Shown in pieces: positions 1-14,353 of a stretch of 14,353 nt of DNA. Below the pieces are notes generated by a model. It searched no databases. It saw nothing but the letters and a program-made list of their open reading frames with translations, and had not been told where the DNA came from. A program made the translations under genes and the position numbers. Within the stretch, counting starts at the first letter, position 1. Each line of letters begins with the position of its first letter. Origin of the DNA: Coriobacteriaceae bacterium AM48-5. GTDB taxonomy: Bacteria; Actinomycetota; Coriobacteriia; Coriobacteriales; Coriobacteriaceae. Where the stretch lies: contig JAQEDJ010000052.1 of assembly GCA_027669525.1 (NCBI GenBank), forward strand, positions 1-14,353, written 5' to 3'.

Positions 1-451
1 TCAGTTCGTGGTTAAGGTCGACGAGCCGAGGCGCCGGCGTAAGCGACTCTGCCGGCAAGAATTCCGACAGGGTCCAGCTCACCTTCCCCAAAGACGAGAA
101 CGGTTCGGCCGATCGCTTTATCCCCGTTTGGAAAAAAGCGCTGACGGCCGAGGAATCCCACGCCGACCAGGCGGAAAAGAAGGGGGACACGTTCCAGTGG
201 AAGGACGGCGGGTCCGTCGAGTATAACGGCAGGACGTGGCTCGTCGGAACATACGAGGACAACAGCGGCATCTCAACCATGCTTTTTACCGACGTTGAGC
301 CGGGAAGCGTCTACGTCCTCATCTCGAACTTCGACCAGCACAAGAAAGAAGCCGAGGCGCTCCTCAGCTCCATCGAGTTCCCCGATGACATGGCGAAGGC
401 AGTTGCCGAGCACGCGAAGTCGAGATTTCGAGCATCGAGATCAGGCATTAG
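1..451 (+). CDS. Secreted-domain paralogue, 5' end outside window, frameshifted
   Basis: This is the 3' part of a gene whose product resembles the lipoprotein at 679-1271. The two share the blocks RFIPV, FTDV-x2-GSVYV, NF/NV-x-Q/E-HK and F-x-DD-x-AKA in the same order. The reading frame changes twice. Bases 2-28 read FVVKVDEP in frame 2, the main body from 30 to about 418 is in frame 3, and the last codons return to frame 2 to end VEISSIEIRH with a TAG at 449-451, matching VKLDDIEIKR of the paralogue. Alignment to the paralogue suggests two bases are missing near 29 (CCGGAGGGC read as CCGAGGC) and one near 418 (AAGGTC read as AAGTC). I do not recognise the domain. A complete copy would probably start with a lipoprotein signal like its neighbour. 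It is either a decaying duplicate or an intact gene with assembly errors; the second is more likely. Confidence 0.7.
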
Positions 452-506
452 GGGCTCGCACGCAGCATCGCATGCGCAGTCATTAAATGATCGGGCACCC
501 AACACC

Positions 507-541
507 GGGGAGGGTCGATAGCATCGGCCCTCCCCTCTTTT
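507..541 (+). terminator. Rho-independent terminator
   Basis: A 13-bp stem, GGGGAGGGTCGAT pairing with ATCGGCCCTCCCC through one G-U pair, encloses a 3-nt loop and is followed by TCTTTT. It lies 55 bases after the TAG at 451. Its core is nearly the same as the terminator after the next gene, as if the duplication included the terminator. Confidence 0.9.
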
Positions 542-678
542 ACACCCGCGCATATTGCCACTTGTCGGCGCAAATCCAGCCCCCAGAATGGGACACATGG
601 CCCACCCTAGCGAGCCATCCACGCGTACAGTAAAGGCAGGTAATCCATGGGCGGTTACAGATCGAGGAGGACACGACC

Positions 679-1271
679 ATGAAAAAGAAGGCCTTTGCGA
701 TTCTCACCCTCTGCATCAGTCTCTTTGCCGCGGTTGCCTGATGGGCTGCGGTGGCAGCGGTGGCGCTACCGGCAGTGGCGGTGGCGGCGGAGCAGAAAAG
801 CCAGCCGTGGATATGAGGACCGACTTCATTTGGTTTAAAGTCGAGGTCCCCGAGGGCGTCGAGATCACCGACGTTGCCGGCGACACGGCCGACAGGGCCC
901 AGTTTAAGTTCACCGAGAACGAGCACGCCAGCGATCGCTTCATCCCTGTCTTCGACTCTGACAAGAACGCCGACGAGCTGTTCGACTACGAGGCCAAATG
1001 GAAGGCCAACTTTGAGTGGACCGAGAATGACCCCGTCAAGTACAACGGCAAGTCCTGGCGCAACGCTTCCTACACGCACACGGGCGGTGTGACGACCGAG
1101 TACTTCACCGACGTTGACGGCGGCAGCGTGTACGTGCGCATCGACAACGTCGAGGAGCACAAGGATGCCGTCGAGACCATGATGAAGTCTCTGGAATTTG
1201 CCGACGACATCGCCAAGGCCAAGACCGAGGCCATGGACGTCAAGCTCGACGATATCGAGATCAAGCGCTAA
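679..1271 (+). CDS. Small Gly-linker lipoprotein, frameshifted in signal peptide
   Basis: The ATG at 679 follows GAGGAGG at about 664-670 and opens MKKKAFAILTLCISLFAAVA, a classic signal peptide that runs straight into a TGA at 739. One extra C in GTTGCC (737-738) gives ...AVALMGC, a good lipobox with the lipidated Cys at residue 24, and continues in the frame that holds the rest of the protein. The corrected product has 197 residues: signal 1-23, a Gly/Ser linker of about 14 residues, and a soluble domain from about 39 to 197 paralogous to the gene at 1-451. It should be anchored to the outer face of the membrane. The domain is not one I can name. Without the signal-peptide frame an artefactual upstream start at 555 would be chosen, which lacks any export signal. 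A strong terminator follows, so this is probably a single-gene transcript. Confidence 0.8.
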
Positions 1272-1575
1272 GCGACTGGCGAGCGCAACGGGAAACACGG
1301 GCGCAGCGCAAGCAAGCGACAGTGACCCAGCGCTTCGTACCAAGGGAGGGTCGGCTCACCGGCCCTCCCTTTCTTATGCCGATAGCCGGCGAACGCGAGG
1401 GTGCCGGACGGCAAAACCACCCCCAGCGCGGTAGCAACACAAATAGACAAGCACCCCAGTGCGTCCGCCCGCCGATTTATAGCGCCGCGCAGACAATTGA
1501 GCCGATGCCTTTGGACATCCGGGCAGTATAGTGACCAAAACGAGCGCATAACCGCACCCTGCGAATGGAGGAGTT
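1272..1575. other. Intergenic region before the phospholipase gene
   Basis: This 304-base stretch holds the terminator at 1342-1375 and then about 200 bases of leader for the phospholipase gene. A TATAGT at 1527-1532 could be a -10 box, but I see no good -35 at the right distance. GGAGGAG at 1567-1573 is the ribosome binding site of the next gene. ORFs here on either strand have no RBS and look random. Confidence 0.6.
1342..1375 (+). terminator. Rho-independent terminator
   Basis: The 13-bp stem AAGGGAGGGTCGG / CCGGCCCTCCCTT has one G-U pair and a 4-nt loop (CTCA), and is followed by TCTT. It terminates the lipoprotein gene and shares the GGGAGGGTCG / CGGCCCTCCC core with the terminator at 507-541. 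Confidence 0.9.
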
Positions 1576-4040
1576 ATGACCGAGCACCAAGCAATCAGCC
1601 GTCGAGCATTCACGTTGGGCCTAGGACTCGCAGCATTGTCGCCATTTGCAAGCCTGCCCGAAACCGCGGGATTGGGCCTTCCCATGCGCGCGGCATTTGC
1701 AGAAGACACGCCCACACCGGCGGCCAACCTCGACAAGTTCGTCATTCGCCTTCGCCCCGCGGGCTATTTTCGCACCGCGAGCGTCAACGAAGACGGCAAC
1801 GTCATCGGCAACGTCTGCCACCTGTTTAATGACGGCACGTCCAGCAAGCTCATCCTTGAGAAAGTGCTGACCGATGCAGATAATACAAATTGGTATGCCA
1901 TCCGCACCTTACTCAATTTCGAAGAGCATAAAAAGACGGGCTACAGCATTTGGTCGGTCGACGGCGACTCGGACAAAGATGGAAAGGTCATCCACGTATG
2001 GAGTGGCGAGTATGACAAAAAGCCCAGCCGCGCTTTTGCGTTTGAACGCCAGTTAAACGGAACCTATATCATCCGAGACCGCACAAACGAGAAAAAAGAC
2101 ATTAATTACCTGGCCATAGAAAAGGACGGCAAAGACCAGGACAACAACAAGATCTGCCATAAGAGGAAGGACATTCCGTGGGAGCTCGAGCTTGTCGGTT
2201 ACGACATGGGCAAGATCAATACCACGGTTAGAAGTATCGACTGGACCACGTATAGCAGCTACGTCGACGGGCCCTGTTGGATGAAATACGTCGACAACAA
2301 CAAGTTCCTCGACGAACTGAGCATCCCGGCACGCACGATTCGGGCACCTGCAGCGTGGACAACGACACCGAGCCCCAATCCTCCCAAGCAAAATGCCAGC
2401 AGGATTACATCCCCACACAGCTGCTCGAAGGCGTTCGCTATTTTGATATTCGACTTGGAAAGGGTGAGAACCCCGGCATCGACCACGGAGCTTGTTACCT
2501 GCTCAAAAAAGACGGGAACTTTATGCATCTCTCCGATGTCATCGGGTACTTCAATACGTTTTTGAGCGAAAACCCGACAGAAGCGCTCATCATGCTTGTG
2601 TCGCGAGGCAATGACGAGGCTACCAACGAAAGCCTCACGACGGCCTTGGGCAAGGTTTTTGATGAGAACCCCGACCTGTTCTACACATCGAGCCGCATCC
2701 CCACGCTGGGCGAGGTGCGCGGAAAGATCGTCCTGCTGCGTCGGTTTGGGCTCGCCGGCAACAGCGTAAGCAGCCACACATGGGGCCTCGACCTCACCCA
2801 ATGGGACGACAAAATCGCAGCACACACCGACAGCACCTCTATGTGTCTCGTTCGAGACGAGCGGGGCTTTGAAGCCGTGGGGAAAACGGGTGACGAAGAG
2901 CCCTATTGCACCAAGGTATACGCCCAGGACCATTACGAATGCACAGGAACCGACAAAATCGGCTGGGTCGATATGGCGCTGCAGGAGACAACCAAGCTCG
3001 CCCGCATCATGGTGGACGTCGAGGACAATGACGGGGCCAAGGTAAAGGTCCTGGAGCACAGCTGGTGTATCAACTACACCAGCTGCACGAACTACAAGCA
3101 AGGAAGCAATCCTTTTACCGCAGCACGAGTGGTCAACGAGCATCTATACAAGAGCCAGTATATAAACAGCACCGGAAATGAGAGCACAAAGGAGGACTGC
3201 CTCAAGCACATTGGCATCATTGCGTCCGACTTTGTTGATGCGGCACTGGCCCGAAGCATCTACCAGCGCAATTACGATGCGAAGCACAAGCAGACCGTTT
3301 CGTACTACCTCCCGACCCGTATGCGCATGACATACGGCGACTCGTTGAGCGATGCCTCACTTCAGGATGGAAAGACCGTTGGCGAGGGCCATTTCCGCCT
3401 TGTCGACAGCAGTAACGTACTCAACTGGACGGCTTCGGGCCACACGTTTGATATCGAATACGTGGATGTCGATGCCTTGGGCAACGAGACCGTTACGGAG
3501 CTGCGGGGCCTCGTGCCCATCGATATCGAACGGCGCGCGCTGACGCCCCATTTTGAGGGGCTCGAAGGCCTTAAGGTCGGCGAGGACGTGCGCGCCAAGA
3601 TCGCGGCGACGCTCGAGGGCAAGCTCGAAGGCGATGCCTGCACAGCCCAACTCGAGTTTATGCACGATGCAAACGGTGCTCCAGGAACGGTGATGGCCGA
3701 GGGCGAGGCATTTGCCGCGGGGACGTATTGGGTGCGTGCGAAAGACCTGTTGGGCGACGCGGCAAAGAACTACATGCTCGCCAGCAATGGAGCCGTAAGC
3801 TTTACCGTAGCGGCCTCGGGCAGTGCAGGCGGCACCGGCAGCGGCACGGGTTCCAACGCAGACGGCGCTGATAAGAATGGTAAGGGCAACAAGGGTAAGG
3901 GCTCGGGCGGAAAACTCGCCGACACGGGCGACGGCTCCGGCATTGCCGCCGGGCTCGCCGCTGCCGCCATGGCGACAACGGTCGCTGGCGCGGCAATGCT
4001 TGCCAACGATCGCGAAGACAACGGAGACGTTGACGATTAG
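1576..4040 (+). CDS. Tat-exported, wall-anchored PI-PLC X-domain phospholipase, frameshifted
   Basis: The corrected product has 821 residues and is predicted to cleave phosphatidylinositol or a related lipid at the cell surface. ATG 1576 sits 3 bases after GGAGGAG. Residues 7-14 (I-S-R-R-A-F-T-L) form a twin-arginine signal with likely cleavage after AFA at 40-42. Residues about 53-205 look like a ricin-type beta-trefoil (WYAIRT, GYSIWSVDGD, HVWSG, YIIRD, NYLAIE). The PI-PLC X domain follows with PGTHDSGT (His254), YFDIRLG (Asp291, Arg293) and IDHG (His304). The 50-residue spacing of the two catalytic His matches Bacillus cereus PI-PLC (His32, His82). A beta-rich region (about 600-750) and a Gly/Lys/Ser-rich spacer lead to LADTG (781-785), a hydrophobic stretch and an acidic tail. 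One G is missing near 2328 (CCCGGGCACG read as CCCGGCACG), which splits the gene between the ricin-like part and the catalytic core. The lipid substrate is inferred only from the family. Confidence 0.88.
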
Positions 4041-4075
4041 GCCAGCCAGCCCTTTTGGACACATCGATTTAATGA

Positions 4076-4110
4076 GGGGCGCAGGACACCGTTCTGTGCC
4101 CCCGATTTTA
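4076..4110 (+). terminator. Terminator between convergent genes
   Basis: A fully paired 12-bp stem, GGGGCGCAGGAC with GTTCTGTGCCCC and three G-U pairs, has an ACC loop and is followed by CGATTTT. It sits 35 bases after the phospholipase stop and may also stop the convergent minus-strand gene at 4135. Confidence 0.8.
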
Positions 4111-4134
4111 CCTTGGCTCGAACGCCGCCATGGG

Positions 4135-4413
4135 CTACATCACCATGTTCAGCGCGTTCACAAATTCCTTGGCCTGGGAATGACTGCTCAGCCTGTAGGA
4201 ACAGTCGGTCAGTAACCTATTACGAAGGAGCACGCGCTTACCCTTGACCCTGTTGACACCCGTAATGTCCTTGAGGTAGACGATTTTGGTATGGGTGCCG
4301 AAGAAGTTGTTCTTCACGACCGCCTCGATACGATTGGGATAGATGCTTATTCCCTTGAAAACGCCGGCACCCTTATCGTGAAACAACAACGTGTTGTCAT
4401 CCACGCGCGCCAC
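4135..4413 (-). CDS. Small PH-like domain protein
   Basis: The ORF has 92 residues with no signal peptide or membrane segment. The pattern GVFKGISIYPNRIE, FFGTHTKIVYLKDITGV, LLRNR and a final AKEFVNAL helix fits a bacterial pleckstrin-homology-like fold (strand-rich body and one C-terminal helix). That call rests on pattern only. The start is uncertain. The GTG at 4413 is preceded by a run of six G, and an ATG at 4418-4420 lies just upstream out of frame. If the G run were two bases longer, that ATG would be in frame and would add MGG. Such proteins are often cytoplasmic or membrane-associated, but nothing here shows the role. It converges on the phospholipase gene and is divergent from hicA; about 230 AT-rich bases separate it from hicA. 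Confidence 0.65.
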   Translation of the reverse strand: MARVDDNTLLFHDKGAGVFKGISIYPNRIEAVVKNNFFGTHTKIVYLKDITGVNRVKGKRVLLRNRLLTDCSYRLSSHSQAKEFVNALNMVM

Positions 4414-4575
4414 CCCCCATGGAGTTCGATAAAACTATCTCTATGACCACATTTTAGTCACTACAAACCCTTTTTGCGGTCACGCGCAGGGCACCAAAAC
4501 GTGTCCGCACGAGCAAATAGACTAATACGACAACGAATATAAGCCGTTATCCAAGGATGGGCCGCAAAAAAGGGA

Positions 4576-4628
4576 TTAGCAATAGCTAAGATTAAAGCCT
4601 AAAAAAAACCCTTAGGAAGTGCTAATAT
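4576..4628 (+). promoter_or_regulatory. hicA promoter region with possible operator
   Basis: TG-C-TAATAT at 4620-4628 is a good extended -10 box, placing transcription start about 15 bases before hicA. The -35 position holds only TAAAAA. Just upstream, TTAGC-AATA-GCTAA (4576-4589) is an inverted repeat, its GCTAA half-site recurs at 4621-4625 over the -10 box, and CCTAA...TTAGG flanks the spacer. HicB proteins with an HTH usually repress their own operon, so these half-sites are candidate operators; this is inference. Confidence 0.5.
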
Positions 4629-4650
4629 ATAGTTATTGAAAGAGGCTGAG

Positions 4651-4821
4651 ATGCAGAGACGCGAATTGATCCGTATCCTCGAAGAAGCCGGCTTCATCTC
4701 GAAAGGAGGCACTAATCACGAGAAGTTCGTCAAAGGAGATAAACTCGTGCTCGTGAAACGCCACCGAGAGATCGAGGATCAAATTGCCAAAAGAATCCTA
4801 AGGCAGGCAGGGCTTCGGTAG
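4651..4821 (+). CDS. hicA: HicA-type toxin (mRNA interferase)
   Basis: The product has 56 residues and the compact dsRBD-like HicA pattern: RELIRILEEAGF, then GGTNHEKF with the conserved G-x-x-H catalytic histidine, a strand with KLVLVKRH, and a closing ILRQAGL helix. HicA toxins cut mRNA independently of the ribosome and are blocked by HicB. The ATG at 4651 is preferred over an in-frame TTG at 4636 because AAAGAGG (4639-4645) lies at normal spacing before it. It is followed after 45 bases by a HicB-like gene, the usual toxin-first order. The length is normal and the catalytic His is present, so it should be active. Confidence 0.88.
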   Translation: MQRRELIRILEEAGFISKGGTNHEKFVKGDKLVLVKRHREIEDQIAKRILRQAGLR

Positions 4822-4866
4822 CTCATCCTCATCGCATTTCGCATCGCCTTTTAGAGGAGGTCTTAC

Positions 4867-5318
4867 ATGGTTTACGCATGGGAATTTGAGTTCTTTGATT
4901 CGGACGGTATGGTCGATGCCGTGCCATGTGGCTCGCTGGGCGGAGGAGGAACGTTTGGCTCCGACCTAAACGACGCTATCGAAAGCGCCGCTGATTTTCT
5001 CGCATGCATGGTCGACGATCACCTTATGGGTGGCATTGAACTTCCCGCGCCGGATTTCGGACACGAGCCGCGACACGGCGGCAAGATTATCGCCGTAGCC
5101 GTCAGCCGCGAACTCGCCGACATCCCCGCCGTCACCGCAGCGGATGCCGCGCGCATGCTCGGTGTTAGCTCAGCACGGGTTTCGCAACTGATAAATGCAG
5201 GACTGTTGGATTCATGGAAGGATGGCACCAAGCGCATGGTGTCCAAAGCTCCATCGAGGCACGACTCGCCGACGCTCCAAAGGCAGGACGCCCGAAAGAA
5301 ATGCCTGTTGCCGTGTAA
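4867..5318 (+). CDS. hicB: HicB-type antitoxin with C-terminal HTH, frameshifted near the end
   Basis: The ATG at 4867 has a strong AGAGGAGG before it. Residues 1-80 form the degraded RNase-H-like HicB fold: EFEFFDSDGM, the DLNDAIESAADFLACMV helix and IELPAP. Residues 89-127 (VTAADAARMLGVSSARVSQL and the following wing) form a helix-turn-helix of the excisionase/MerR-like type, so the protein probably both neutralises HicA and represses the operon. The frame breaks at AAA 5245-5247. Adding one A gives KSSIEARLADAPKAGRPKE and the natural stop TAA at 5316-5318, for 150 residues. Uncorrected, the ORF runs on to 5358 with a Cys/His-rich tail that looks random. The helix AGLLDSW-KDGTKRMVS followed by a GRPKE tail is common in HTH antitoxins. 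Confidence 0.82.
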
Positions 5319-5364
5319 AGAGACGTCTAGGCACACCATTTGGCATATTGACCATTGAGCTCTC

Positions 5365-5395
5365 TCGATTCGCGACGCACTGCGTCGCGAATCGA
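5365..5395. promoter_or_regulatory. 31-nt perfect palindrome between hicB and the hydrolase gene
   Basis: The arms TCGATTCGCGACGCA and TGCGTCGCGAATCGA are 15 bp, perfectly paired, and separated by a single C. No T-run follows on either strand, so it is a poor Rho-independent terminator. It is 46 bases after the corrected hicB stop and 61 before the hydrolase ATG. It could be a dimeric operator, an mRNA processing or attenuation hairpin, or a protein-binding site. Confidence 0.75.
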
Positions 5396-5456
5396 ACTGA
5401 ACATATTGTCGCCGATTGCCACGCATTTCCAATCCGAAGTGCAAGAGGAGTTTTCC

Positions 5457-6374
5457 ATGACAGGTGTCAATCAGGCCATCACCGAAAGCGCACCTAAAGT
5501 GTGTTCTGCCGAGGACATGGCCACACGACGCAAGAGCGACTCAGAGGGATTTCGGCTCATCTCGCCAGCACCCCCTACAACGAAACGTGGGCACACGTCG
5601 AAACCAGCGCTACGCGATTGCATCTATGGGCTTGCCGTCGGCGACGCGCTGGGCGTTCCTTACGAGTTCAGGCCCCGCGGCACGTTCGAATGCGCCGACA
5701 TGATCGGCTACGGCACGCATGGGCAGCCCGCCGGCACCTGGAGCGACGACACATCTATGACGCTTGCTACCTGCGACTCGATTAGGGAGCTCGGGCACAT
5801 CGACACTGCGGACATGCGCGACAAGTTCGTAAGTTGGATTGCCCGTGGCGAGTATACGATCGACGGCGTTTTCGATTACGGCGGCACGACCGCCCGCGCC
5901 TTGCACACCGGCAAAGGAGGCTCCGGCGAGCGCGACAACGGCAACGGTTCGCTCATGCGCATCGCGCCCCTGGCGTTTGTCGACGCGACTGACGACGAGG
6001 TCAGCAAGGTCTCCGCGATTACGCACGCCCACAGAACGTCGACCGGTGCATGCGTCATATTTGTCGAGCTGATGAGAGATGTGATGAACGACGTGCTCCC
6101 CTCGTGGGCACTCCATCTGAAAGGCGTGCCTGAGCAGGAGATCAGGTCAGGTGGCTTCGTGCGCGACACGCTTAAGGCAGCCACCTGGTGTTTCGTCAAC
6201 ACTAACAGCTACGAAGATTGCGTGCTTGCCGCCGTCAACCTGGGCGACGACACCGACACCACCGCAGCCGTCGCCGGCGCCCTCGCCGGCACGGCCTACG
6301 GTCTCAAAGCCATCCCACAGGAGTGGATCGACACTCTACGCGGAAAAGAGCTGATTGAGCAGTGTTTGTTTTAG
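5457..6374 (+). CDS. ADP-ribosylglycohydrolase family protein
   Basis: The product has 305 residues and should remove ADP-ribose from modified proteins or small molecules with a binuclear Mg centre (DraG/ARH fold). Signature motifs are in order: IYGLAVGDALG (57-66), GTWSDDT (93-99, metal ligands), DNGNGSLMR (160-168), a His-rich helix ITHAHR (188-193) and GDDTDTTAAVAGALAG (263-278, second ligand set DTDT). The ATG at 5457 has AGAGGAG 6 bases before it; an in-frame ATG at 5355 lacks one and overlaps the palindrome. Residues about 33-51 look unnatural in this frame (PAPPTTKRGHTSKP), whereas frame 2 there reads HLASTPYNETWAHVETSA. A missing G at 5554 and two missing bases near 5610 would restore a smoother N-terminus. 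The catalytic core is intact. It follows the hicAB pair and is 35 bases before a small acidic protein, suggesting co-transcription. Confidence 0.9.
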   Translation: MTGVNQAITESAPKVCSAEDMATRRKSDSEGFRLISPAPPTTKRGHTSKPALRDCIYGLAVGDALGVPYEFRPRGTFECADMIGYGTHGQPAGTWSDDTSMTLATCDSIRELGHIDTADMRDKFVSWIARGEYTIDGVFDYGGTTARALHTGKGGSGERDNGNGSLMRIAPLAFVDATDDEVSKVSAITHAHRTSTGACVIFVELMRDVMNDVLPSWALHLKGVPEQEIRSGGFVRDTLKAATWCFVNTNSYEDCVLAAVNLGDDTDTTAAVAGALAGTAYGLKAIPQEWIDTLRGKELIEQCLF

Positions 6375-6409
6375 GGCACACTTACGATAGAAACTGACCA
6401 GGGGGCACC

Positions 6410-6631
6410 ATGGAAAGAGAGATCGCAAATATAGATGAGTTCCAAGTGGACGAAAACGGGATTCCGCTATTTCCAGCAGGACTGAAGGAAGAAGCCAGCC
6501 TCTATGTCCTCCCCGACGGGCGCTACCTCCCTTGCGAGCTCTACAGGACCGAAGATGGCGGCTCACTCATTTATGAGCCATCCGGGCTCAGCTTCTTCGG
6601 GCAGATGCTTGCTCAATTAAAAGAGTGCTAG
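6410..6631 (+). CDS. 73-residue acidic protein of unknown function
   Basis: The gene begins 35 bases after the hydrolase stop, with a G-rich Shine-Dalgarno (GGGGG) 5-9 bases before the ATG. The product is acidic and soluble: an N-terminal EIANIDEFQVDENGIPLFPAG segment, a strand-rich middle (YVLPDGRYLPCELY, GGSLIYEP) and a C-terminal amphipathic helix. There is no signal peptide or known motif. The position suggests co-transcription with the hydrolase and perhaps with hicAB. Its small size and acidity are reminiscent of partner or inhibitor proteins, but no function can be assigned. Confidence 0.65.
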   Translation: MEREIANIDEFQVDENGIPLFPAGLKEEASLYVLPDGRYLPCELYRTEDGGSLIYEPSGLSFFGQMLAQLKEC

Positions 6632-6774
6632 AGGTTTGATTGCCCGTTAGATCGACGCTGTTCCAAACCACGGGATGGACAGGATGTCTCCCACCGCGGC
6701 CTGTGAGGTAAAATCTTGACTGCCGCGGAATCCGCCTGCGGGCAACGCTCCGATCTCCGATTGGGGTGAAGCCT

Positions 6775-6867
6775 ATGAACTTGTTTCTTGAAATCCTGCG
6801 CCTCTCGATGTATGTGACCGGCATTGCCCGGAACCTCTACTCGATCTGGCGGGGATATAAGCAGTAA
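6775..6867 (+). CDS. Candidate 30-residue hydrophobic/basic peptide
   Basis: ATG 6775 follows GGGGTGAAG and opens a 30-codon ORF beginning MNLFLEILRLSMYVTGIARN and ending WRGYKQ, stop TAA at 6865-6867. It has an N-terminal acidic residue, a central amphipathic or weakly hydrophobic helix and a basic aromatic end, and is followed 24 bases later by a strong hairpin. The combination of short leader, tiny membrane-prone peptide and hairpin is seen in type I toxins, but the sequence is not one I recognise. It may be noise. Confidence 0.35.
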   Translation: MNLFLEILRLSMYVTGIARNLYSIWRGYKQ

Positions 6868-6890
6868 CGGATAGCGAAGGGAGTCATAGA

Positions 6891-6916
6891 AAAGGGCCGG
6901 TTGCAGCCGACCCTTT
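6891..6916. terminator. Hairpin, likely bidirectional terminator
   Basis: AAAGGGCCGGT pairs with AGCCGACCCTTT apart from one C-A mismatch and one T-G pair, around a TGCA loop. On the minus strand it is followed by TTTTCT, the better polarity for termination, so it may end the SHOCT-gene transcript as well as the plus-strand unit. Confidence 0.6.
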
Positions 6917-7146
6917 AGACGATAATACCTGCGTTGCCCGCGCTTCCGAAGTGTGACTAGCTGAGGAGCGGGTTCCGCGGCACATCTTGATTTTACCCAG
7001 CGGCAAGGCTCTTTTACAGCCGTTCCACCGTTTATTTACATCTGCCAATCAAGACGAGACTACTACGCACCTTTATTACACACGATGTTTTCAGCCTGGT
7101 ATAAACAAGTTCAATAATAGAATGCAAATCCAACCATCATGTCTGA

Positions 7147-7615
7147 TTACGAAAGGATTTTTGCCTTTTCTGCAGCAAACTCTTCCTCGGTAAGTACTCC
7201 ACTCTCACGCAGTGCTGCAAGCCTCTCAAGCCTTGCAACTACATCAACCACTATCCGCCAGCGTCTCAATAGTCTGTGAAACCTGCGGATACCGCTCGAG
7301 CTCCTTCGATAGGGCATCGACTATCTCGGCAATATTCTTTGCATTTTTGCCCCCGTTTAATACGTTTGCCCTGACCTTAGATGACGACTTGACAGTAACG
7401 CCAGATCCGCCTTCAACTGGAACAACCGAAATACTGATATTTTCGCCCCAAGACCAAAGGCTCATACCAATCTCGGCTGCAACTGTTCTTGTTGTGGGCG
7501 ATGCACTATCAACTTTTACTTTAGGCTGCTTTTCCATAGCTGTCTTCAAGGCATTAAACGTGTCGTCAGGAGAATACGGTACCTGAAGCTGAAGCTGCTG
7601 ATCCGCAAAACCCAT
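7147..7615 (-). CDS. SHOCT-domain protein, frameshifted before the SHOCT motif
   Basis: The ATG at 7615 has GGAGG at proper distance on the minus strand. Residues 1-123 form an alpha/beta domain (LQVPYSPDDTFNALKTAMEK, then WSWGENISISVVPVEGGSGV and VRANVLNGGKNAKNIAEIVD) resembling ligand-binding or START-like small domains; I cannot name it. The ORF then stops at 7244. In another frame VARLERLAALRESGVLTEEE leads on to FAAEKAKILS and a TAA at 7147-7149, an unmistakable SHOCT motif. Two missing G at 7248-7249 (GGGG read as GG, minus strand) would join them into 156 residues. SHOCT motifs typically close proteins of this size and mediate oligomerisation. Codon use is more AT-rich than in neighbours, suggesting separate origin. 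Confidence 0.78.
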
Positions 7616-7731
7616 AATCTGGCCTCCGCTTCTTACAAGATTAAGGCTATCGGCAATGGTAGCACGTTCCCAGCAGTCTTAAATTCGTCTCATGACCTTG
7701 CGATGCAGCCCGACACCCCGGCACCACTCCC

Positions 7732-9068
7732 CTACTTACCAAAGATCGCAGCGAGCAAGCCCTTGCGTTTGGGCTTTTCCTCTCGATAGGAACCCTCGGC
7801 CGCCGCTGCCACCTGACGCGGCTGCTCGCCGCCTCCACGGCGCACGATCTGGTATAGGAACGGCGATTTAACATATTTGACCTCGACGGGTGTGGCGTGT
7901 ACGGTGCTCTCGCCGGACAGATGCAAGCTCGGACTGAGCGGCGCCACGATATGCGTTTCGCGCTTGTCGCTAAACACCACCGCGGCCGCACGACCCGTCT
8001 GGCCGTTCACGGCGATGCGCACCTGCTCGCCGTCGCGGCTGTCCGTCGCCGGACGATCGACAAAGTAGACCGGCACCATCACCAGACCGTCTTTATGCTT
8101 GCGGGCCTTGCGCGCCCAGGCGCGGATGCTCTTTTTATTGAGCCCCAGCACCGCCTCGGCATCGTTGCCTGCAATGTCGAGCGCCAGCTTATCAATAACC
8201 ACCTGGTCCTTGGTGGACGCATCGACGGAAACGACGCGGAAGTCACCCTCCTGCATGGCGGGATCGAACGGCCCCACCTTGCCAAAGTCCCACGGCTCCA
8301 GAATGCCCATAAGGCGAACGTCCAGGTAGTTTGCCCTGGGGTATGCCCAGTCGAGCACCTCGTAGTACACCAGGGTCTCCTTGCTCAGACCCTTGCCCGG
8401 GAAGGACGCCATCATGCGCAGATCCGCGAGCGCCATGGGAAAGTAGAAAAGCATCATGTCGTTTTGGATCGCGTCTTCTACGTCGTGCCCGGCAAAGGCG
8501 TCGGAGTACTGGCGCACCAGCTGCAGTGCGTTGGCACGTGCCGCTGCGGCGATATCTCACAGGGGACGCCCTGTTCGGAAACGTATTCGGCACCTACGCC
8601 CATGGTCAGGCGCTTACTAAACGTGCCGGGCTTGAGCAGGTCGGCCACGCCAATCTTGTTGCCGCACGACGGGCACTCAAACACGCGCTGGGTCGACTCG
8701 CCCTCAAACGACGCACCGCAGAAGGGGCAGGGAATGCTCACGTGCGTGGCCTCTTGGAGGTCCTGAGCCGTGCCGCGGTCTTCCCACAGCAGATGCTCCA
8801 GGACCGACTGATTGCGCCAGTGCGAATTGAAGAAATACCAGTCCGGGTCATCTGGGCGCTCGAGCTGCGAGACATGCGTGAGCTTGAGCAGCCCGTCAAC
8901 CACCGTCAACGGCGTATGACGAATGCCCAGGGCGCTCTTGGGCTCTCCGGCGTCCGCTTGCCACGGAATAACCGTTTCACAATAGGCGCACTCAAAACTG
9001 CGCTTTGCCTGATGCGAATACATGGGGCCGCCGCAGTTTTGGCATTTAATGGCAAACATCTCGTCCAT
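7732..9068 (-). CDS. Double zinc-ribbon protein, frameshifted
   Basis: ATG 9068 has AAGGAGG eight bases before it. The corrected product has 445 residues. Two zinc ribbons are visible: C9-x2-C12...C27-x2-C30 (CQNCGG, CAYC) and C114-x2-C117...C132-x2-C135 (CPFCGAS, CPSCGN). The second half holds ARANALQLVRQYSDAFAG, a long alpha/beta region and a Lys/Arg-rich end (KPKRKGLLAAIFGK). It has no signal peptide and no clear membrane segment, so it is presumably cytoplasmic or membrane-associated through its tail. The frame breaks near 8550: one extra G (TCGGCC read as TCGCC on the minus strand) joins VPCEIS to AAAARANALQ. TFIIB-type ribbon proteins of this kind are common in Coriobacteriia and related Gram-positives, without known function. 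It is divergent from the cation transporter. Confidence 0.78.
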
Positions 9069-9327
9069 GGAAACGTCCTCCTTTGCACAGGGCTGTCGAC
9101 ATTAAGTATGTCGAGCAAATCGGCGCGTGCCCATACCCATGTGGCCCAAAATGGAGCACTCGGTCGGACGGGAAGGCGCAGTGAACTCGAGGCGCGCGGG
9201 CAGTCGTCCCCTCTGCCTCGCGCCCGTTAGCTCCAGCAGACCATTGCTGCATTTTCTGAGCATCGGCACATGTTGCGTCTGTGCGAGCTACACTATCCCC
9301 TTAAACAAGATTGTGAGGACGATCGTT

Positions 9328-10509
9328 ATGCTATTTGTAAATCGGCTGGTACATACGCTTGTTCCGGGCAGCGAGAGCGAACCGGTCGACGCTTCCCGCC
9401 GCACCAACGCGGGCTTTGCCGCAAGCCTCATTTGCATTGGCCTCAACATCACGCTGTGCCTGGCCAAGGGCATAGCCGGTCTGCTCGCCGGCTCTGTCTC
9501 GCTCATCGCCGACGCCTTCAACAACCTCTCCGATGCATCAAGCAACATCGTGAGCCTGCTCGGGTTCCGCCTTGCCAGCCGTCCGGCCGACGAAGGTCAC
9601 CCCTATGGCCACGGCCGTTACGAGTACCTGGCGGGGCTGTTTGTCGCCGTTCTCGTTTGCGCCGTCGGCATCAACCTGATCCTGGAGTCGGCCACCAAGA
9701 TCATCAAGCCCTCCCCCACCGCGTATTCGGCGCTCTCGATGGCCGCCCTTGTCCTGTCCATGCTCGTCAAGTTTTGGATGGCGGCGTTCAACCGCACGCT
9801 GGGCAACCGCATAGATTCCGAGACGCTTATCGCCACGGCGCAGGATTCCAAAAACGACGTCATTACCTCGTCCTCGGTCCTGGCCGCAGCGCTTATTTCG
9901 CAGACGACCGGCTTTGACCTCGACGGCTGGGCAGGCCTGGGCGTGGGCATCTTCATCTGCATCAGCGGCATGGGCCTGGTGCGCGACGCCATCAGCCCGC
10001 TGTTGGGGCAAGCGCCCGACCCCAAGCTCGTCCAGGCAATCCGCGACAAGATCATGTCGTATCCGCAGGTCCTAGGCACGCACGACCTGATGGTGCACGA
10101 CTACGGCCCCGGCCGCCAATTTGCCAGTGCGCACGTGGAAATGCCCGGCGAGGGTGATGCGTTTGAGCACCACGAAATCTTGGACACCATCGAGCACGAT
10201 ATCAAACGGCAGATGGGCATCGGTATCACACTGCACTGCGACCCCATCGCCACCACCGGCGACGACCTGCGCGGCTGGGTCAAGCGCGGTGTCATGCAGA
10301 TCGACCCCGCGCTCTCCATCCACGACTTGCATGAGCACGAGGGGTTCGTTTCGTTTGACCTGGTGCGTCCCGACGGCTTTGACATATCCGACGAGGAGCT
10401 GCTGGAGCTCGTCACGCGCATCGTGCACGAGCGCCGGCCCGATGCCTCGTGCGTCGTCACATTTGACTCGGGCTTTAGCTCACCCGAGCGTCCGGCCGAG
10501 CAGCTGTAA
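9328..10509 (+). CDS. Cation diffusion facilitator, MntE-like manganese exporter
   Basis: The 393-residue protein exports a divalent metal in exchange for protons. ATG 9328 (MLFVNRLVHT) has GAGG about 9 bases before it; an in-frame start at 9127 would add 67 residues lacking any family similarity. Six membrane segments lie between about residues 28 and 212. The metal site of TM2 is N65-x3-D69 (NNLSD) and of TM5 D173-x3-D177 (DSKND). This Asn-Asp/Asp-Asp set replaces the His-containing set of zinc CDFs and matches MntE of streptococci, which is also about 390 residues long. HPYGHGRYEY (91-100) is the conserved TM2-TM3 loop. The cytoplasmic part is extended, with a standard CDF C-terminal fold and a second ferredoxin-like stretch (about 310-385). 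Mn(II) specificity is inferred. I see no yybP-ykoY-type riboswitch in the 259-base leader. Confidence 0.9.
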   Translation: MLFVNRLVHTLVPGSESEPVDASRRTNAGFAASLICIGLNITLCLAKGIAGLLAGSVSLIADAFNNLSDASSNIVSLLGFRLASRPADEGHPYGHGRYEYLAGLFVAVLVCAVGINLILESATKIIKPSPTAYSALSMAALVLSMLVKFWMAAFNRTLGNRIDSETLIATAQDSKNDVITSSSVLAAALISQTTGFDLDGWAGLGVGIFICISGMGLVRDAISPLLGQAPDPKLVQAIRDKIMSYPQVLGTHDLMVHDYGPGRQFASAHVEMPGEGDAFEHHEILDTIEHDIKRQMGIGITLHCDPIATTGDDLRGWVKRGVMQIDPALSIHDLHEHEGFVSFDLVRPDGFDISDEELLELVTRIVHERRPDASCVVTFDSGFSSPERPAEQL

Positions 10510-10517
10510 TCGACAGC

Positions 10518-10587
10518 AAAACGGGACGCAGGACCGCCGACCAACGCGCCTACGCGCCTGGTCACGCGATCCTGCGTCCCGTTTTTG
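10518..10587. terminator. Strong bidirectional terminator
   Basis: AAAACGGGACGCAGGA (10518-10533) pairs perfectly with TCCTGCGTCCCGTTTT (10570-10585), with T-rich sequence after it on the plus strand and an A-run on the left. It lies between the convergent transporter gene and the minus-strand gene ending at 10620, so it can stop both. Confidence 0.92.
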
Positions 10588-10619
10588 TTTGCACTGCTAA
10601 GGCTCTAGCCGCTCGACCG

Positions 10620-11576
10620 CTAGTTCCCCTGCGCACCCGAAATGCCGTTTTGCAGCGTATCCCAGGCATTGGTTGCCATATCGCCCAGATTCTGCGCGGT
10701 ATCGCCGAGATTCTGAGCGGTGTCACCCAACTGCTGGGCCTTATCTCCCAGCTCCTGGGCCTTGTTGCTCAGGTCCTCCAGCGTGTTAGAGCTCGAGCTG
10801 TCCGCGCCGCCCTGGTCGCCGGTCGCGTTGCCCGACGAGCTGCCCTTGCGCGTGAGCTGGACCTCCAGGTTACCGTTGTCGTTATAGTAGGCAGACGTCA
10901 CGACCCAGTTGGCATCGACAACGGGCGTCGAGCCATCATCGGTCAGGATCACGGCATTCGAAAGATCGGCCCCGCGCGACTTGAGGAGCTTCTTGGCGTT
11001 TGACCAGTACTGCCCCGGGATATCGCTCAGGTCGACGGTGCCGGACTGGGTAGTTTCGGTCTGCTCGGCCGTGGTATCAGTCGTGGCGCCCCGCTTGTTG
11101 AGCATGCCCGACACGATGGCAAACACAACCGACAGGGCAAAGAAAATCGCCAGCACAATCAGAATTTTCTTGATCACGCTCGACGAACGCGACGGCGCCT
11201 CTTCCTCGTCCTCACCATACTGCGGAATCGATTTGGGATACTCGCGATACGGCTCGCGCGCATATCGGTCGCGCGACTCGTAGCGCGGCTGTGCCGTGCG
11301 CGGCATATATGTCGTCTGCTGAGGTTGCGGAATGGGGTTTTGCAGCAAGTCATCATAAGGGTTTGCCGCCGCGCTTCCGTAGGGACTCTGCGACGAGGCG
11401 CCATACGGGTCCTGCGCCGCGTTCCCGTAATTCACAACGCGCGTGGGATCGGCCGACGCCTGCGTCGTATCGGGGGCAGCGTAGCCGGGATTCGGCACGA
11501 CGCGGGTCTCATCGGCGCCATTGCCCGTCCGCGGGGAGCCGTAGCCACCCATTACGGTCGTCTTATCCTGGTCCAT
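10620..11576 (-). CDS. Single-pass membrane protein with D-x-T-x-V repeats and PASTA-like exterior
   Basis: The 318-residue protein starts at ATG 11576 with AAAGGA upstream. Its cytoplasmic part (1-133) is disordered and rich in Pro, Gly, Tyr and Gln, and holds three spaced motifs, DKTTVM (4-9), DETRVV (22-27) and DPTRVV (43-48), which fit sites phosphorylated by Ser/Thr kinases and read by FHA domains. One membrane helix spans 134-157. The outer part has a PASTA-like unit (about 186-243: PGQYWSNAKKLLKSRGA ... NWVVTSA ... LEVQLTR) followed by a Ser-rich linker and seven-residue repeats ending in LGD (272-300). The ends are AQGN. It is probably an envelope or cell-wall sensor linked to kinase signalling. 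No kinase is in the window. A TAGAAT on the minus strand (11622-11627) could be its -10 box. Confidence 0.78.
   Translation of the reverse strand: MDQDKTTVMGGYGSPRTGNGADETRVVPNPGYAAPDTTQASADPTRVVNYGNAAQDPYGASSQSPYGSAAANPYDDLLQNPIPQPQQTTYMPRTAQPRYESRDRYAREPYREYPKSIPQYGEDEEEAPSRSSSVIKKILIVLAIFFALSVVFAIVSGMLNKRGATTDTTAEQTETTQSGTVDLSDIPGQYWSNAKKLLKSRGADLSNAVILTDDGSTPVVDANWVVTSAYYNDNGNLEVQLTRKGSSSGNATGDQGGADSSSSNTLEDLSNKAQELGDKAQQLGDTAQNLGDTAQNLGDMATNAWDTLQNGISGAQGN
10677..10763 (-). repeat. 21-bp tandem coding repeat
   Basis: Four degenerate 21-bp units encode KAQELGD, KAQQLGD, TAQNLGD and TAQNLGD, followed by a diverged MATNAWD. The regular spacing of Ala, Leu and Asp predicts an amphipathic helix, possibly a coiled-coil or surface-binding rod, outside the membrane. 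Confidence 0.85.
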
Positions 11577-11713
11577 GCAACGATTCCTTTCCGTCGCCCG
11601 TAAGCATCAAGTTATCCATGCATTCTACCCGCGCAAAAGCCTATGATGGGCAAAGCCCGTCGGTATCTACAAGACATGCGCGGCCGACGGTCACAAGCGA
11701 ATTGAGGAACGTC

Positions 11714-11950
11714 ATGGCAAAAAGCAAGCTCATCAAAGACACAACGCGCGCCGAACGCGAGGAGATCATTAAGCTGGCACTCGCGGGCTGCGGTAACGGC
11801 AGCTGCGACAACTGTGGAAGCTGCAGCTTGGGAGCCGGCGATCCATATGGCACCTACCAGCCCTACATTGACGGCGAGATGGAAATCGCCGACATCAACA
11901 TGATGGTCGCCGAGCGCAACGCCAAACTCTTCGGCCTCCAGCGCGGCTAA
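11714..11950 (+). CDS. 78-residue protein with a Cys cluster
   Basis: ATG 11714 follows TGAGGAA. The product has a basic N-terminal helix (LIKDTTRAEREEIIKLALAG), then C26-x4-C31-x2-C34-x2-C37 (CGNGSCDNCGSC), a DPYGTYQPY segment and an acidic C-terminal helix. Four Cys so close suggest a Zn or Fe-S site; which one cannot be told from sequence. It is divergent from the D-x-T-x-V protein, with 137 bases between; a TATGAT at 11642-11647 may be its -10 box. Not a family I can name. Confidence 0.72.
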   Translation: MAKSKLIKDTTRAEREEIIKLALAGCGNGSCDNCGSCSLGAGDPYGTYQPYIDGEMEIADINMMVAERNAKLFGLQRG

Positions 11951-11969
11951 GCTTTTTGATCCGTTTTCC

Positions 11970-11992
11970 TCCGTCCCCTTGGGATCAAAAAG
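11970..11992. repeat. Post-terminator repeat, copy 1
   Basis: Bases 11970-11992 match 14192-14214 with one mismatch (TCCGTCCCCTTGGGA, then T or A, then CAAAAAG). In the minus direction both copies sit directly after a GC-rich terminator stem and form its T-tract. A TGATCC precedes each at slightly different distance. Confidence 0.8.
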
Positions 11993-12033
11993 TCCCCGGC
12001 AGCGCTGCGTTTTGCGTCACCGGGGGACTTTGT
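11990..12033. terminator. Terminator between convergent genes
   Basis: AAGTCCCCGG pairs with CCGGGGGACTT around a loop of about 20 bases, with one extra G in the right arm. On the minus strand it is followed by CTTTTTG, so it ends the gene at 12057-14074; the plus side has only TTTGT. A second inverted repeat, CTTTTTGATCC / GGATCAAAAAG (11952-11992), overlaps its left arm by three bases. Confidence 0.72.
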
Positions 12034-12056
12034 AATTCGCTTCTTGCGGCTTTACT

Positions 12057-14074
12057 CTACTCGTTGGGTACGTACGTGGCCCTAGCCCGGTCGGGCGTTA
12101 CATCCTGACCGCAGGAATAGCTCGAGTCGAAGGCGTGCGCAACCAAGTCGTGGGTATCCCATGCCATGCAGTCAAACTCGCCAGTATCGAGGACGATGAT
12201 ATAGCCCTTGCCATCGTAGTAGAAATGATCCTCGGTGTAGTTATCGTCATCGTCGATGTTGTCTTCGGACACGGAGTCCATTTCCGGCTTTGCCGTCCTA
12301 ATTGCCTGCTTGGCCTCACTCTTGAGCGTGTCAAACGAGAGCCCGTGCTGCGCAAGCGAGTCCTCGAGCGAAACCTGCTCACCTGTCTTGAGGTTGTAGT
12401 ACGCCGACCTCGTCTTCTGCACCGATCGATACGGAGGCTGATAACTGTTGGTGAACGTACGCACGCAGGCAATTTCGCCGTCAATCGAGACGATCTCGGC
12501 GGTGTACATCATGGTCACGCGGCTGTCCTCGTCGTCCATCGAGGCCTGCTTACTCGCTTCGAGGGTATCCGCGACCAGCTGAACCATATCTTTGTTGAAC
12601 TTGGCGACGCCCACGCCCTGGCCCTTTACCTGAGGATAGGTCCACGTAGCCGAAATCTGGCATGTGTCATCGGGGGACGGATTCAGCGGGCCTTCGCCAA
12701 CCGCAGCCGTAAAGTTGACATCCTGCGTGGCAGAGACGGCCTCGTAGCTCGCCTGCGCATCGTCAGCGTCCTTCGACTTCAGCTGCTCCAGCGTCGTGGC
12801 GACCGTGCCAATGGTGCTGTTAACCGAGCTCTCGTCGGCATACAAGAAACCAAAACCGCCCAAAGAGGCAGAATCGACTTCATTCGGGGCAACAAGGTCG
12901 GTCATGGCTTTGAATGACTTGCCGTCGTAGCCAATGAATTTAACTTGGTATTCGTGAGCAGAAGGACCACTTTCGCCAGAGAGATCGCTTTGCTTAATTG
13001 CTGTCCCATGGTCATACCACTGCGAAAAACCAATCTTGCCCTCGTATTCATCAAGCCAGACAGACACACACGCCTCCTGATGAGATACGTTTACCTCTGG
13101 CGTGTAGACCTTCTCAATCTCGCCATTCTTATACGCCCAGACCTCAAGATGCGCAGCGGCTGCGTTATCCCCACGGTCCACCGGTTCATCGGAATACTCA
13201 ATCAGCAGCTCATCTTGACCATCGCCATCAAAGTCAATGAGCTTGGCGTAAGCAACACCCTGGGCTCCATACGCATATTCATCGAACCCGACAGCCTCGC
13301 CCTCGCCATACTTCTTCTGATACTCGAGGATTTTGTCGGTGAACAGCTCGTTTGCCGTCTTGATCGCCGCCTTGGCAGAGGCTTTGGCCTCCTTCTTGGA
13401 CTGCGTGAGCTCAACGCTCTTAGGGGCGTCCGAGCCCTCCTTGGCGTAGTCGACCTTCATGGTGGTCGTGCTCTTCTTTTTGCCCATACCCGAGGTGATG
13501 GTCATCTGGTATTTCTGGTCGGGCAGCTCGCCAAAGTCCTCCATGGCAAAGCCGTCCTCGCCATCCACTTTGATGGTGTAGCTCTTGCCCTTGCCGGACA
13601 CCGGCGCCAGCTCGACGGTATAGCTCTTGAGCTTTTTTCCTTTGCTGTTCTTGGGCAGCACTTTAGTCTCGCATGCGCAGACAACGTAGCCCTTGCCGCC
13701 CGAAGTCACCTCGGACGACGAGCCGATGCGCGGCACGACGACGATTGCCGCTACGATGGCGACAACGGCAACACCGCCGATAACGGCAGCGACAATGCGG
13801 CCCCTGTGCTTGGGTTTCTTGGGCTGCGGCGTCGGAATAAACGGCTGAGAGGCCTCGGCGGGCTCGGTCATAGGCTCCTCATAACGAGCTGCGCCGCCAT
13901 ATGAACCGGGGCACCCTGAGGAACTTGCTGTCCCACAGGAGCGGACGCCGGCGCGTCCTCCACCGGAAACGCCACAGGCTCCGCCTGGTCCTCGGCGGCG
14001 CCCACGCGCGTTCCGCAGCTCGTGCAAAACGTGGAGCCGTCGGGTATCTGAGCTCCGCACTTAGTGCAATACAT
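12057..14074 (-). CDS. Zinc-ribbon, single-TM, DUF3298-like envelope protein, frameshifted
   Basis: The start MYCTKCGAQIPDG is at 14074 with ACGGGAG upstream. The corrected protein has 672 residues. Residues 3-20 are a zinc ribbon (C3-x2-C6, C17-x2-C20); a Pro/Ala linker leads to a membrane helix at 93-114. The outer part contains a calcium-loop-like DFDGDGQDELL (281-291) and a C-terminal domain with AYYNLKTGEQVSLEDSLAQH and FYYDGKGYIIVLDTGEFDCM, in the style of DUF3298/RsiV-like domains. One base is missing in the GGGG run at 13908-13911 (plus strand). Restoring it joins VPQGAP to GSYGGAARYEEPMTEP. Without this the ORF appears to start at 14060 with a random Arg-rich N-terminus and the ribbon is lost. 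A zinc ribbon placed before one TM helix is common in Firmicute and Coriobacterial membrane proteins. The exported domain probably binds a ligand; the function is unknown. Confidence 0.82.
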
Positions 14075-14191
14075 CGCATCTCCCGTCTCTCGTCGCAGCC
14101 GCAATGCGCCCGCGCAATTCTTCCAACTACACCGTACGAGAGAAATCCCCAACCTTGTTGCGCAACATTGCCGCCGTCCCAAAATGATCCT

Positions 14192-14214
14192 TCCGTCCCC
14201 TTGGGAACAAAAAG
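14192..14214. repeat. Post-terminator repeat, copy 2
   Basis: This is the second copy of the element described at 11970-11992, with A instead of T at the sixteenth position. It again follows the terminator stem at 14214-14245 in the minus direction. Confidence 0.8.
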
Positions 14215-14245
14215 CCCCGCCGGGCCTTGGTAGGCGCGGCGGGGC
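14209..14245 (-). terminator. Minus-strand Rho-independent terminator
   Basis: GCCCCGCCG (14214-14222) pairs with CGGCGGGGC (14237-14245); reading the minus strand, the stem is followed by TTTTTG. It implies a minus-strand gene ending between here and the right edge. Confidence 0.8.
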
Positions 14246-14270
14246 GGGCAAGCGGCTATGAGCAGCAGGC

Positions 14271-14353
14271 TTAGAACAAGCCGGTGATGTTGCGTCGTTA
14301 TCGACGTCGATGTTGCGTCGTTATCGACGTCGATGTTCTCGGCCGCGGGAACT
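14271..14353 (-). CDS. Possible 3' end of a minus-strand gene, disrupted by a tandem repeat
   Basis: The terminator at 14209-14245 needs an upstream gene. Reading the minus strand from the edge, the frame VPAAENI is natural, and a natural-looking end NITGLF-stop (TAA at 14271-14273) lies 26 bases before the terminator. The two are separated by two copies of a 23-bp repeat (46 bases), which shifts the frame. With neither copy the end would be AAENITGLF. The gene cannot be named from so little sequence. Confidence 0.3.
14286..14337. repeat. 23-bp tandem repeat, two full copies plus six bases
   Basis: Two identical 23-bp units, each beginning GATGTTGCGTCG and ending TTATCGACGTC, occupy 14286-14308 and 14309-14331, followed by GATGTT at 14332-14337. 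The unit contains the palindrome GACGTC. Its length is not a multiple of three. Confidence 0.9.

What the first reader, a model, noticed from the sequence alone, without database searches (positions are those of the whole stretch)
1..14353. About ten frameshifts, nearly all explained by lost bases in short homopolymers
Genes at 1, 679, 1576, 4867, 5457, 7147, 7732 and 12057 each break where a sensible protein continues in another frame. The break sites are near 29, 418, 737, 2328, 5245, 5554/5610, 7248, 8550 and 13908. Each is repaired by adding one or two bases, mostly to runs such as GG, GGG, AAA or GGGG. No site needs a base removed. A uniform deletion bias across unrelated genes points to assembly error (for example unpolished long reads), not pseudogenes. 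Automatic annotation would wrongly call many of these pseudogenes or split genes.
Basis: partly seen in the sequence, partly recalled or inferred. Interest (0 to 1): 0.7.

Follow-up and report, generated by a model that had tools for sequence, protein, structure and literature searches.

The report
Mostly sequencing-type errors, one natural break
A short piece of a gut-type Collinsella chromosome looks as if many of its genes are broken, but most breaks are missing letters that no examined relative shares, so they are probably errors in the deposited sequence, while one is a real break that a related strain also carries.

Summary
The window is a Collinsella (C. aerofaciens group) contig, chromosomal by inference. 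I found an eighth coding break near 14292, in the last codons of formate-tetrahydrofolate ligase, beside a 23-base tandem duplication absent in relatives. At all eight the window is shorter than every distinct relative sequence covering the site (2 to 19; only 2 near 13887); none is an extra base. Three of the ten do not fit. The pair 5554/5610 is no break: the N-terminus is in frame and found in other proteins. The break at 7248 is real but natural: strain TF06-26 carries it, and its sign is opposite. So error is the likely reading for eight coding sites, but the claim that no site needs a base removed fails. Against pure error: some dN/dS values are raised, no run of five or more bases is hit, relative L016 has at least three breaks here, and two public proteins break within a few codons of 2328. 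Side finding: the PI-PLC-like gene is disrupted in 5 of 17 Collinsella genomes. No reads; low interest.

The parts
1..440 (+). Gene A: lipoprotein-like protein (likeness by reading, no family hit), start lies off the contig; two private frame breaks (zones 20-36 and 403-416)
   Evidence: shorter than 10 of 10 and 14 of 14 distinct relative sequences; no Pfam hit
679..1271 (+). Gene B: related lipoprotein-like protein (by reading); one private frame break (zone 730-745)
   Evidence: 14 of 14 distinct sequences lack the break; no Pfam hit
1576..4040 (+). PI-PLC-X domain protein, probably exported and wall-anchored (signals judged by reading and recall, not tested); one private frame break (zone 2320-2335); the gene is also disrupted in other strains
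   Evidence: PF00388, E 5.2e-9; 8 of 8 distinct sequences; disrupted in 5 of 15 loci; 5 of 17 genomes
4636..4821 (+). HicA-like member of a toxin-antitoxin pair, intact
   Evidence: PF07927, E 6e-10
4867..5346 (+). Helix-turn-helix protein, HicB-like by its place beside HicA (inference; no HicB family hit); one private frame break near its end (zone 5240-5256)
   Evidence: HTH hits below the curated cut-off; 4 of 4 distinct sequences
5457..6374 (+). ADP-ribosylglycohydrolase family protein; NOT broken, longer N-terminus than in 9 of 9 loci printed
   Evidence: PF03747, E 3.3e-59; P0109 (305 aa, 93%) and P0110 align end to end
7147..7615 (-). Small protein with a C-terminal SHOCT-like part in another frame; natural break near 7248 shared with strain TF06-26
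7732..9068 (-). Protein of 445 residues in relatives, zinc-ribbon-like (hits below cut-off), role unknown; one private frame break (zone 8535-8550)
   Evidence: 18 of 18 distinct relative sequences lack the break
9083..9096 (.). Non-coding site where the window is one base shorter than most relatives
   Evidence: 12 of 14 distinct sequences; L016 and L020 agree with the window
9328..10509 (+). Cation diffusion facilitator transporter, intact
10620..11576 (-). Protein of 318 residues, intact
12057..14077 (-). Zinc-ribbon start plus large protein of unknown role; one private frame break near its start (zone 13880-13895)
   Evidence: only 2 of 2 distinct sequences
14257..14353 (-). Last codons of formate-tetrahydrofolate ligase; one private frame break (zone 14285-14300)
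   Evidence: with (the annotated orthologue lies here in L032; 19 of 19 distinct sequences)
14286..14337 (.). 23-base tandem duplication at the contig end, absent in relatives
   Evidence: (excess of 23 bases in all 45 loci with both flanks matched, some from one genome)

Best explanation
The contig is from a Collinsella aerofaciens-group strain whose deposited sequence carries false small losses at about one site per 1.5 kb of coding sequence, the pattern of a consensus made from error-prone reads without adequate polishing, or from thin coverage. Shown here: eight coding frame breaks that no examined relative shares, all losses, without stops by substitution in the genes tested. Inferred: that the bases are present in the living strain. 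The break near 7248 is a separate, natural mutation shared with another strain.
For: All eight private coding breaks are losses; a fair-sign expectation gives one-sided p = 0.004. No relative shares any: 0 of 10, 14, 14, 8, 4, 18, 2 and 19 distinct sequences. Relatives break differently: 12 of 123 gene copies are disrupted, 6 of them by a single in-frame stop, while the window has 0 stops by substitution in the 8 genes tested; 0 of 8 against 6 of 12, two-sided p = 0.042. Constraint holds on both sides of the break in the 445-residue gene (dN/dS 0.053 and 0.084; median among relatives 0.069). Lost bases lie in runs of two or more at 8 of 9 sites against 43% of bases (p = 0.007), counting the non-coding site and taking the commoner alignment at ~2328, where relatives split 8 to 7. 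One break lies in the last codons of a core folate enzyme, next to a 23-base tandem duplication at the contig's end. In one published MinION assembly most indel errors are false deletions, tied to runs of two to eight bases (PMC12007338, passages seen).
Against: No reads and no second copy of this strain were available (no genome held). One relative, L016, has at least three frame breaks in the same region although its title is that of a well-covered short-read-type assembly, so several real breaks in one strain are possible. dN/dS of the window against relatives is above that among relatives in lipoprotein-like A (0.359 vs 0.232), B (0.099 vs 0.069) and the PI-PLC gene (0.288 vs 0.227) (medians). 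Two public proteins, P0004 and P0005, break within a few codons of the window's break near 2328, which could mean a natural hot spot there. None of the 36 runs of five or more is a break site, whereas the cited paper puts the peak of false deletions after runs of four to five. Both copies of the 23-base duplication appear to carry the loss near 14292 (read by eye), which random read errors would not give directly. Support near 13887 rests on two distinct sequences.
Confidence: 0.82

Rival explanations
1. The breaks are real and recent: this strain is losing a run of dispensable genes between two folate-metabolism loci, through small losses too young to be followed by stops or clearly relaxed constraint.
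For: The PI-PLC gene is disrupted in 5 of 17 Collinsella genomes and 12 of 123 gene copies in relatives are disrupted; L016 has at least three breaks here; P0004 and P0005 break close to the window's PI-PLC break; one window break (7248) is natural.
Against: Eight private breaks in one strain, all of one sign and none a stop, against half stops in relatives; a core folate enzyme is hit.
Confidence: 0.12
2. The strain is a mutator, for example without mismatch repair, that gathers single-base losses.
For: Losses favour short runs.
Against: None of the 36 runs of five or more, the usual targets of such mutators (recalled), is a break site; repair genes lie outside the window and were not seen.
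Confidence: 0.03
3. The breaks are programmed frameshifts that the cell reads through.
For: The break near 7248 leaves both parts legible in two strains.
Against: At the eight private sites every relative examined has the other length; at 7248 an unbroken form also exists (P0230, P0233).
Confidence: 0.02

Closest known systems
False-deletion errors in long-read bacterial assemblies (as profiled in PMC12007338, passages only)
   Same: Losses dominate, mostly in short runs; genes split by frameshift, not stops
   Different: Here runs are 1-4 bases, none of five or more; the read type of this contig is unknown
Natural strain-specific pseudogenes
   Same: The 7248 break, and disrupted PI-PLC genes in other strains
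   Different: Disrupted copies in relatives are half stops, half frameshifts (6 and 6); the window's private breaks are all losses

Membership tests
False-deletion assembly error | Breaks private to the assembly | tested here: met
False-deletion assembly error | Losses outnumber gains | tested here: met
   8 coding losses, 0 private coding single-base gains; the 23-base duplication is a gain
False-deletion assembly error | Association with single-base runs | tested here: inconclusive
   8 of 9 in runs of two or more (7 of 9 if ~2328 is read the other way), none in the 36 runs of five or more
False-deletion assembly error | Reads contradict the assembly | not testable with these tools
   no reads; no genome held
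Natural pseudogene (eight private sites) | In-frame stops by substitution | tested here: not met
   0 in 8 genes tested (hicB-like, SHOCT, ligase end and two small genes not tested)
Natural pseudogene (eight private sites) | Relaxed constraint | tested here: inconclusive
   445-residue gene as constrained as in relatives; lipoprotein-like A and B and the PI-PLC gene somewhat above; only one intact relative for the 667-residue gene
Natural pseudogene (7248 site) | Same break in an independent genome, with intact copies elsewhere | tested here: met

The most novel reading that the evidence does not exclude
The region between the two folate loci is a natural graveyard of surface and lipoprotein-like genes in Collinsella, the PI-PLC-like gene being switched off again and again, and this strain is an extreme case with eight real, very recent small losses.
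Probability: 0.08. Interest if true: 0.4.

Novelty: not a real feature. Interest (0 to 1): 0.12.

Why it matters
It warns that pseudogene counts, split genes and novel short proteins from this contig should not be trusted without reads. It also shows that sign and context alone are not enough: one suspected error is a natural break that another strain carries, and two are not breaks. The repeated disruption of the PI-PLC-like gene in Collinsella is the one biological lead.

Tried and rejected
Looked for the window's own genome: none held. Plasmid and phage records: one Collinsella record, listed as a plasmid of 899,693 bases but carrying ruvABC and folate genes, at 87.7% over 58%; no phage. 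So I take the window as chromosomal; that is inference. A paired gain and loss at 4345/4362 seen against 13 of 14 relatives was rejected as alignment slack: the window's protein is open and matches relatives throughout. Asked whether public proteins share the break near 2328: of 108 hits, eight besides the window's own have full query coverage. In an alignment of 17 proteins, the window's own included, none of the eight breaks at the same codon, but P0004 and P0005 break within a few codons of it and P0003 shortly after, so a hot spot is not excluded. That search admits only proteins of 0.55 to 1.75 times the query's length and so leaves out the intact form of about 829 residues; member counts there are of 90% clusters, not of checked breaks. 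Paper searches for Collinsella with PI-PLC or with pseudogene and frameshift gave nothing on point in the listings. Of the papers, passages of PMC12007338 were seen; for all others only listings with the starts of abstracts.
Full report
What the window is. No genome is held for it. The protein of 7732-8517 finds 21 loci, 20 titled Collinsella and one Senegalimassilia; 11 of 21 are titled C. aerofaciens, at 91-97% protein identity. DNA identity over the longer stretches is about 78-92%. A C. aerofaciens replicon of 899,693 bases carries the genes of the left part, the 445-residue gene, the transporter, the 318-residue gene and the ligase in the same order, annotated whole, with another gene in place of the 4.6-7.6 kb section and without the 11.7-14.1 kb section. 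Genes by family: PI-PLC-X domain protein, HicA-like protein, ADP-ribosylglycohydrolase, cation diffusion facilitator, with weaker zinc-ribbon and helix-turn-helix hits, and, by position in that replicon, the end of formate-tetrahydrofolate ligase.

The observation. Indels against relatives were listed by position and recounted on distinct sequences at 78% identity or more. The window is shorter than every distinct relative sequence near 29 (10 of 10, two bases), 410 (14 of 14), 737 (14 of 14), 2328 (8 of 8), 5249 (4 of 4), 8542 (18 of 18), 13887 (2 of 2) and 14292 (19 of 19), and shorter than 12 of 14 at the non-coding site near 9088, where L016 and L020 agree with the window. Support at 13887 is thin.

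The frame across 5554 and 5610 is open. Nine of nine relatives' loci printed have a shorter N-terminus, but P0109 (305 residues, 93% identity, 100% coverage) and P0110 (86%) carry the window's N-terminal peptide in frame. It was the only one of 43 genus genomes with a match there. Of 16 protein hits, P0229 (123 residues, 98% identity) ends at the same place, while P0230 and P0233 run on into the SHOCT-like part. Against those the window is longer, so the claim that no site needs a base removed fails here.

Controls. Twelve genes gave 123 relatives' copies, 121 of them in multiple alignments (hicB-like and SHOCT genes had one relative each and were not aligned). There the window shows six private frameshifts, all losses, and relatives five in all (L016 two; L058, L020, L021 one each; four losses, one gain). 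The hicB-like gene adds a seventh window break and the ligase an eighth. Open-frame lengths add six copies with a single in-frame stop (four PI-PLC, one ADP-ribosylglycohydrolase, one 667-residue gene) and the shared SHOCT break in L019, so 12 of 123 copies are disrupted; lipoprotein-like A and B and the transporter are intact in all 14, 16 and 20. L016 has a further disrupted copy, of the 4135-4413 gene, seen but not in the set that passed the filters. In the window no stop arose by substitution in the eight genes tested.

Constraint. dN/dS against the closest intact relative, with the median among relatives in brackets: 445-residue gene 0.071 (0.069; 0.053 and 0.084 on the two sides of the break), lipoprotein-like B 0.116 (0.069), PI-PLC gene 0.347 (0.227), lipoprotein-like A 0.492 (0.232), 667-residue gene 0.183 (no comparison). 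Unbroken genes: transporter 0.057 (0.079), 318-residue gene 0.101 (0.140), ADP-ribosylglycohydrolase 0.181 (0.150). So old decay is unlikely for the 445-residue gene, while lipoprotein-like A and B and the PI-PLC gene lie somewhat above the relatives, which counts mildly against pure error.

Context of the losses. In relatives the lost base lies in a run of two or more at 8 of 9 sites and of three or more at 4 of 9, against 43% and 15% of window bases (p = 0.007 and 0.036). Near 2328 relatives split 8 to 7 between a run of three and no run; I took the majority. The window has 36 runs of five or more, 24 in coding sequence, and none is a break site. In one published MinION assembly most indel errors are false deletions, associated with runs of two to eight bases and most frequent after four to five (PMC12007338, passages). 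The match is good in sign and moderate in run length, so I do not name the read type.

Public proteins. Searching the window's PI-PLC frame as it stands gave 108 hits; eight besides its own cover the whole query and so break somewhere in the same sense. None breaks at the same codon, but P0004 and P0005 break within a few codons.

Verdict. The eight coding losses are most likely errors of the deposited sequence (0.82). The 7248 break is natural. The 5554/5610 pair is a misreading. Separately, the PI-PLC-like gene is disrupted in 5 of the 17 genomes that hold it at strong score, among 43 searched (stops in G011, G035, G034 and G006; split in G017); the 15 loci probably overlap with these genomes (not checked one by one).

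Noticed in passing
1576-4040 and its orthologues: The PI-PLC-like gene is disrupted in 5 of 17 Collinsella genomes that hold it, and public proteins show breaks at several further places in it; it may be lost repeatedly or switched.
   Followed up: partly
5464-5598: About 130 extra bases against L007 and L058 give the ADP-ribosylglycohydrolase a longer N-terminus; public proteins P0109 and P0110 share it.
   Followed up: partly
9177-9218: About 42 non-coding bases upstream of the cation transporter are absent in the three relatives for which one search lists the gap (L007, L010, L012).
   Followed up: no
14286-14337: A 23-base tandem duplication at the contig end, absent in relatives; both copies seem to carry the same loss.
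   Followed up: partly
L016: This named relative carries at least three frame breaks in the same region; whether real or error was not settled.
   Followed up: no
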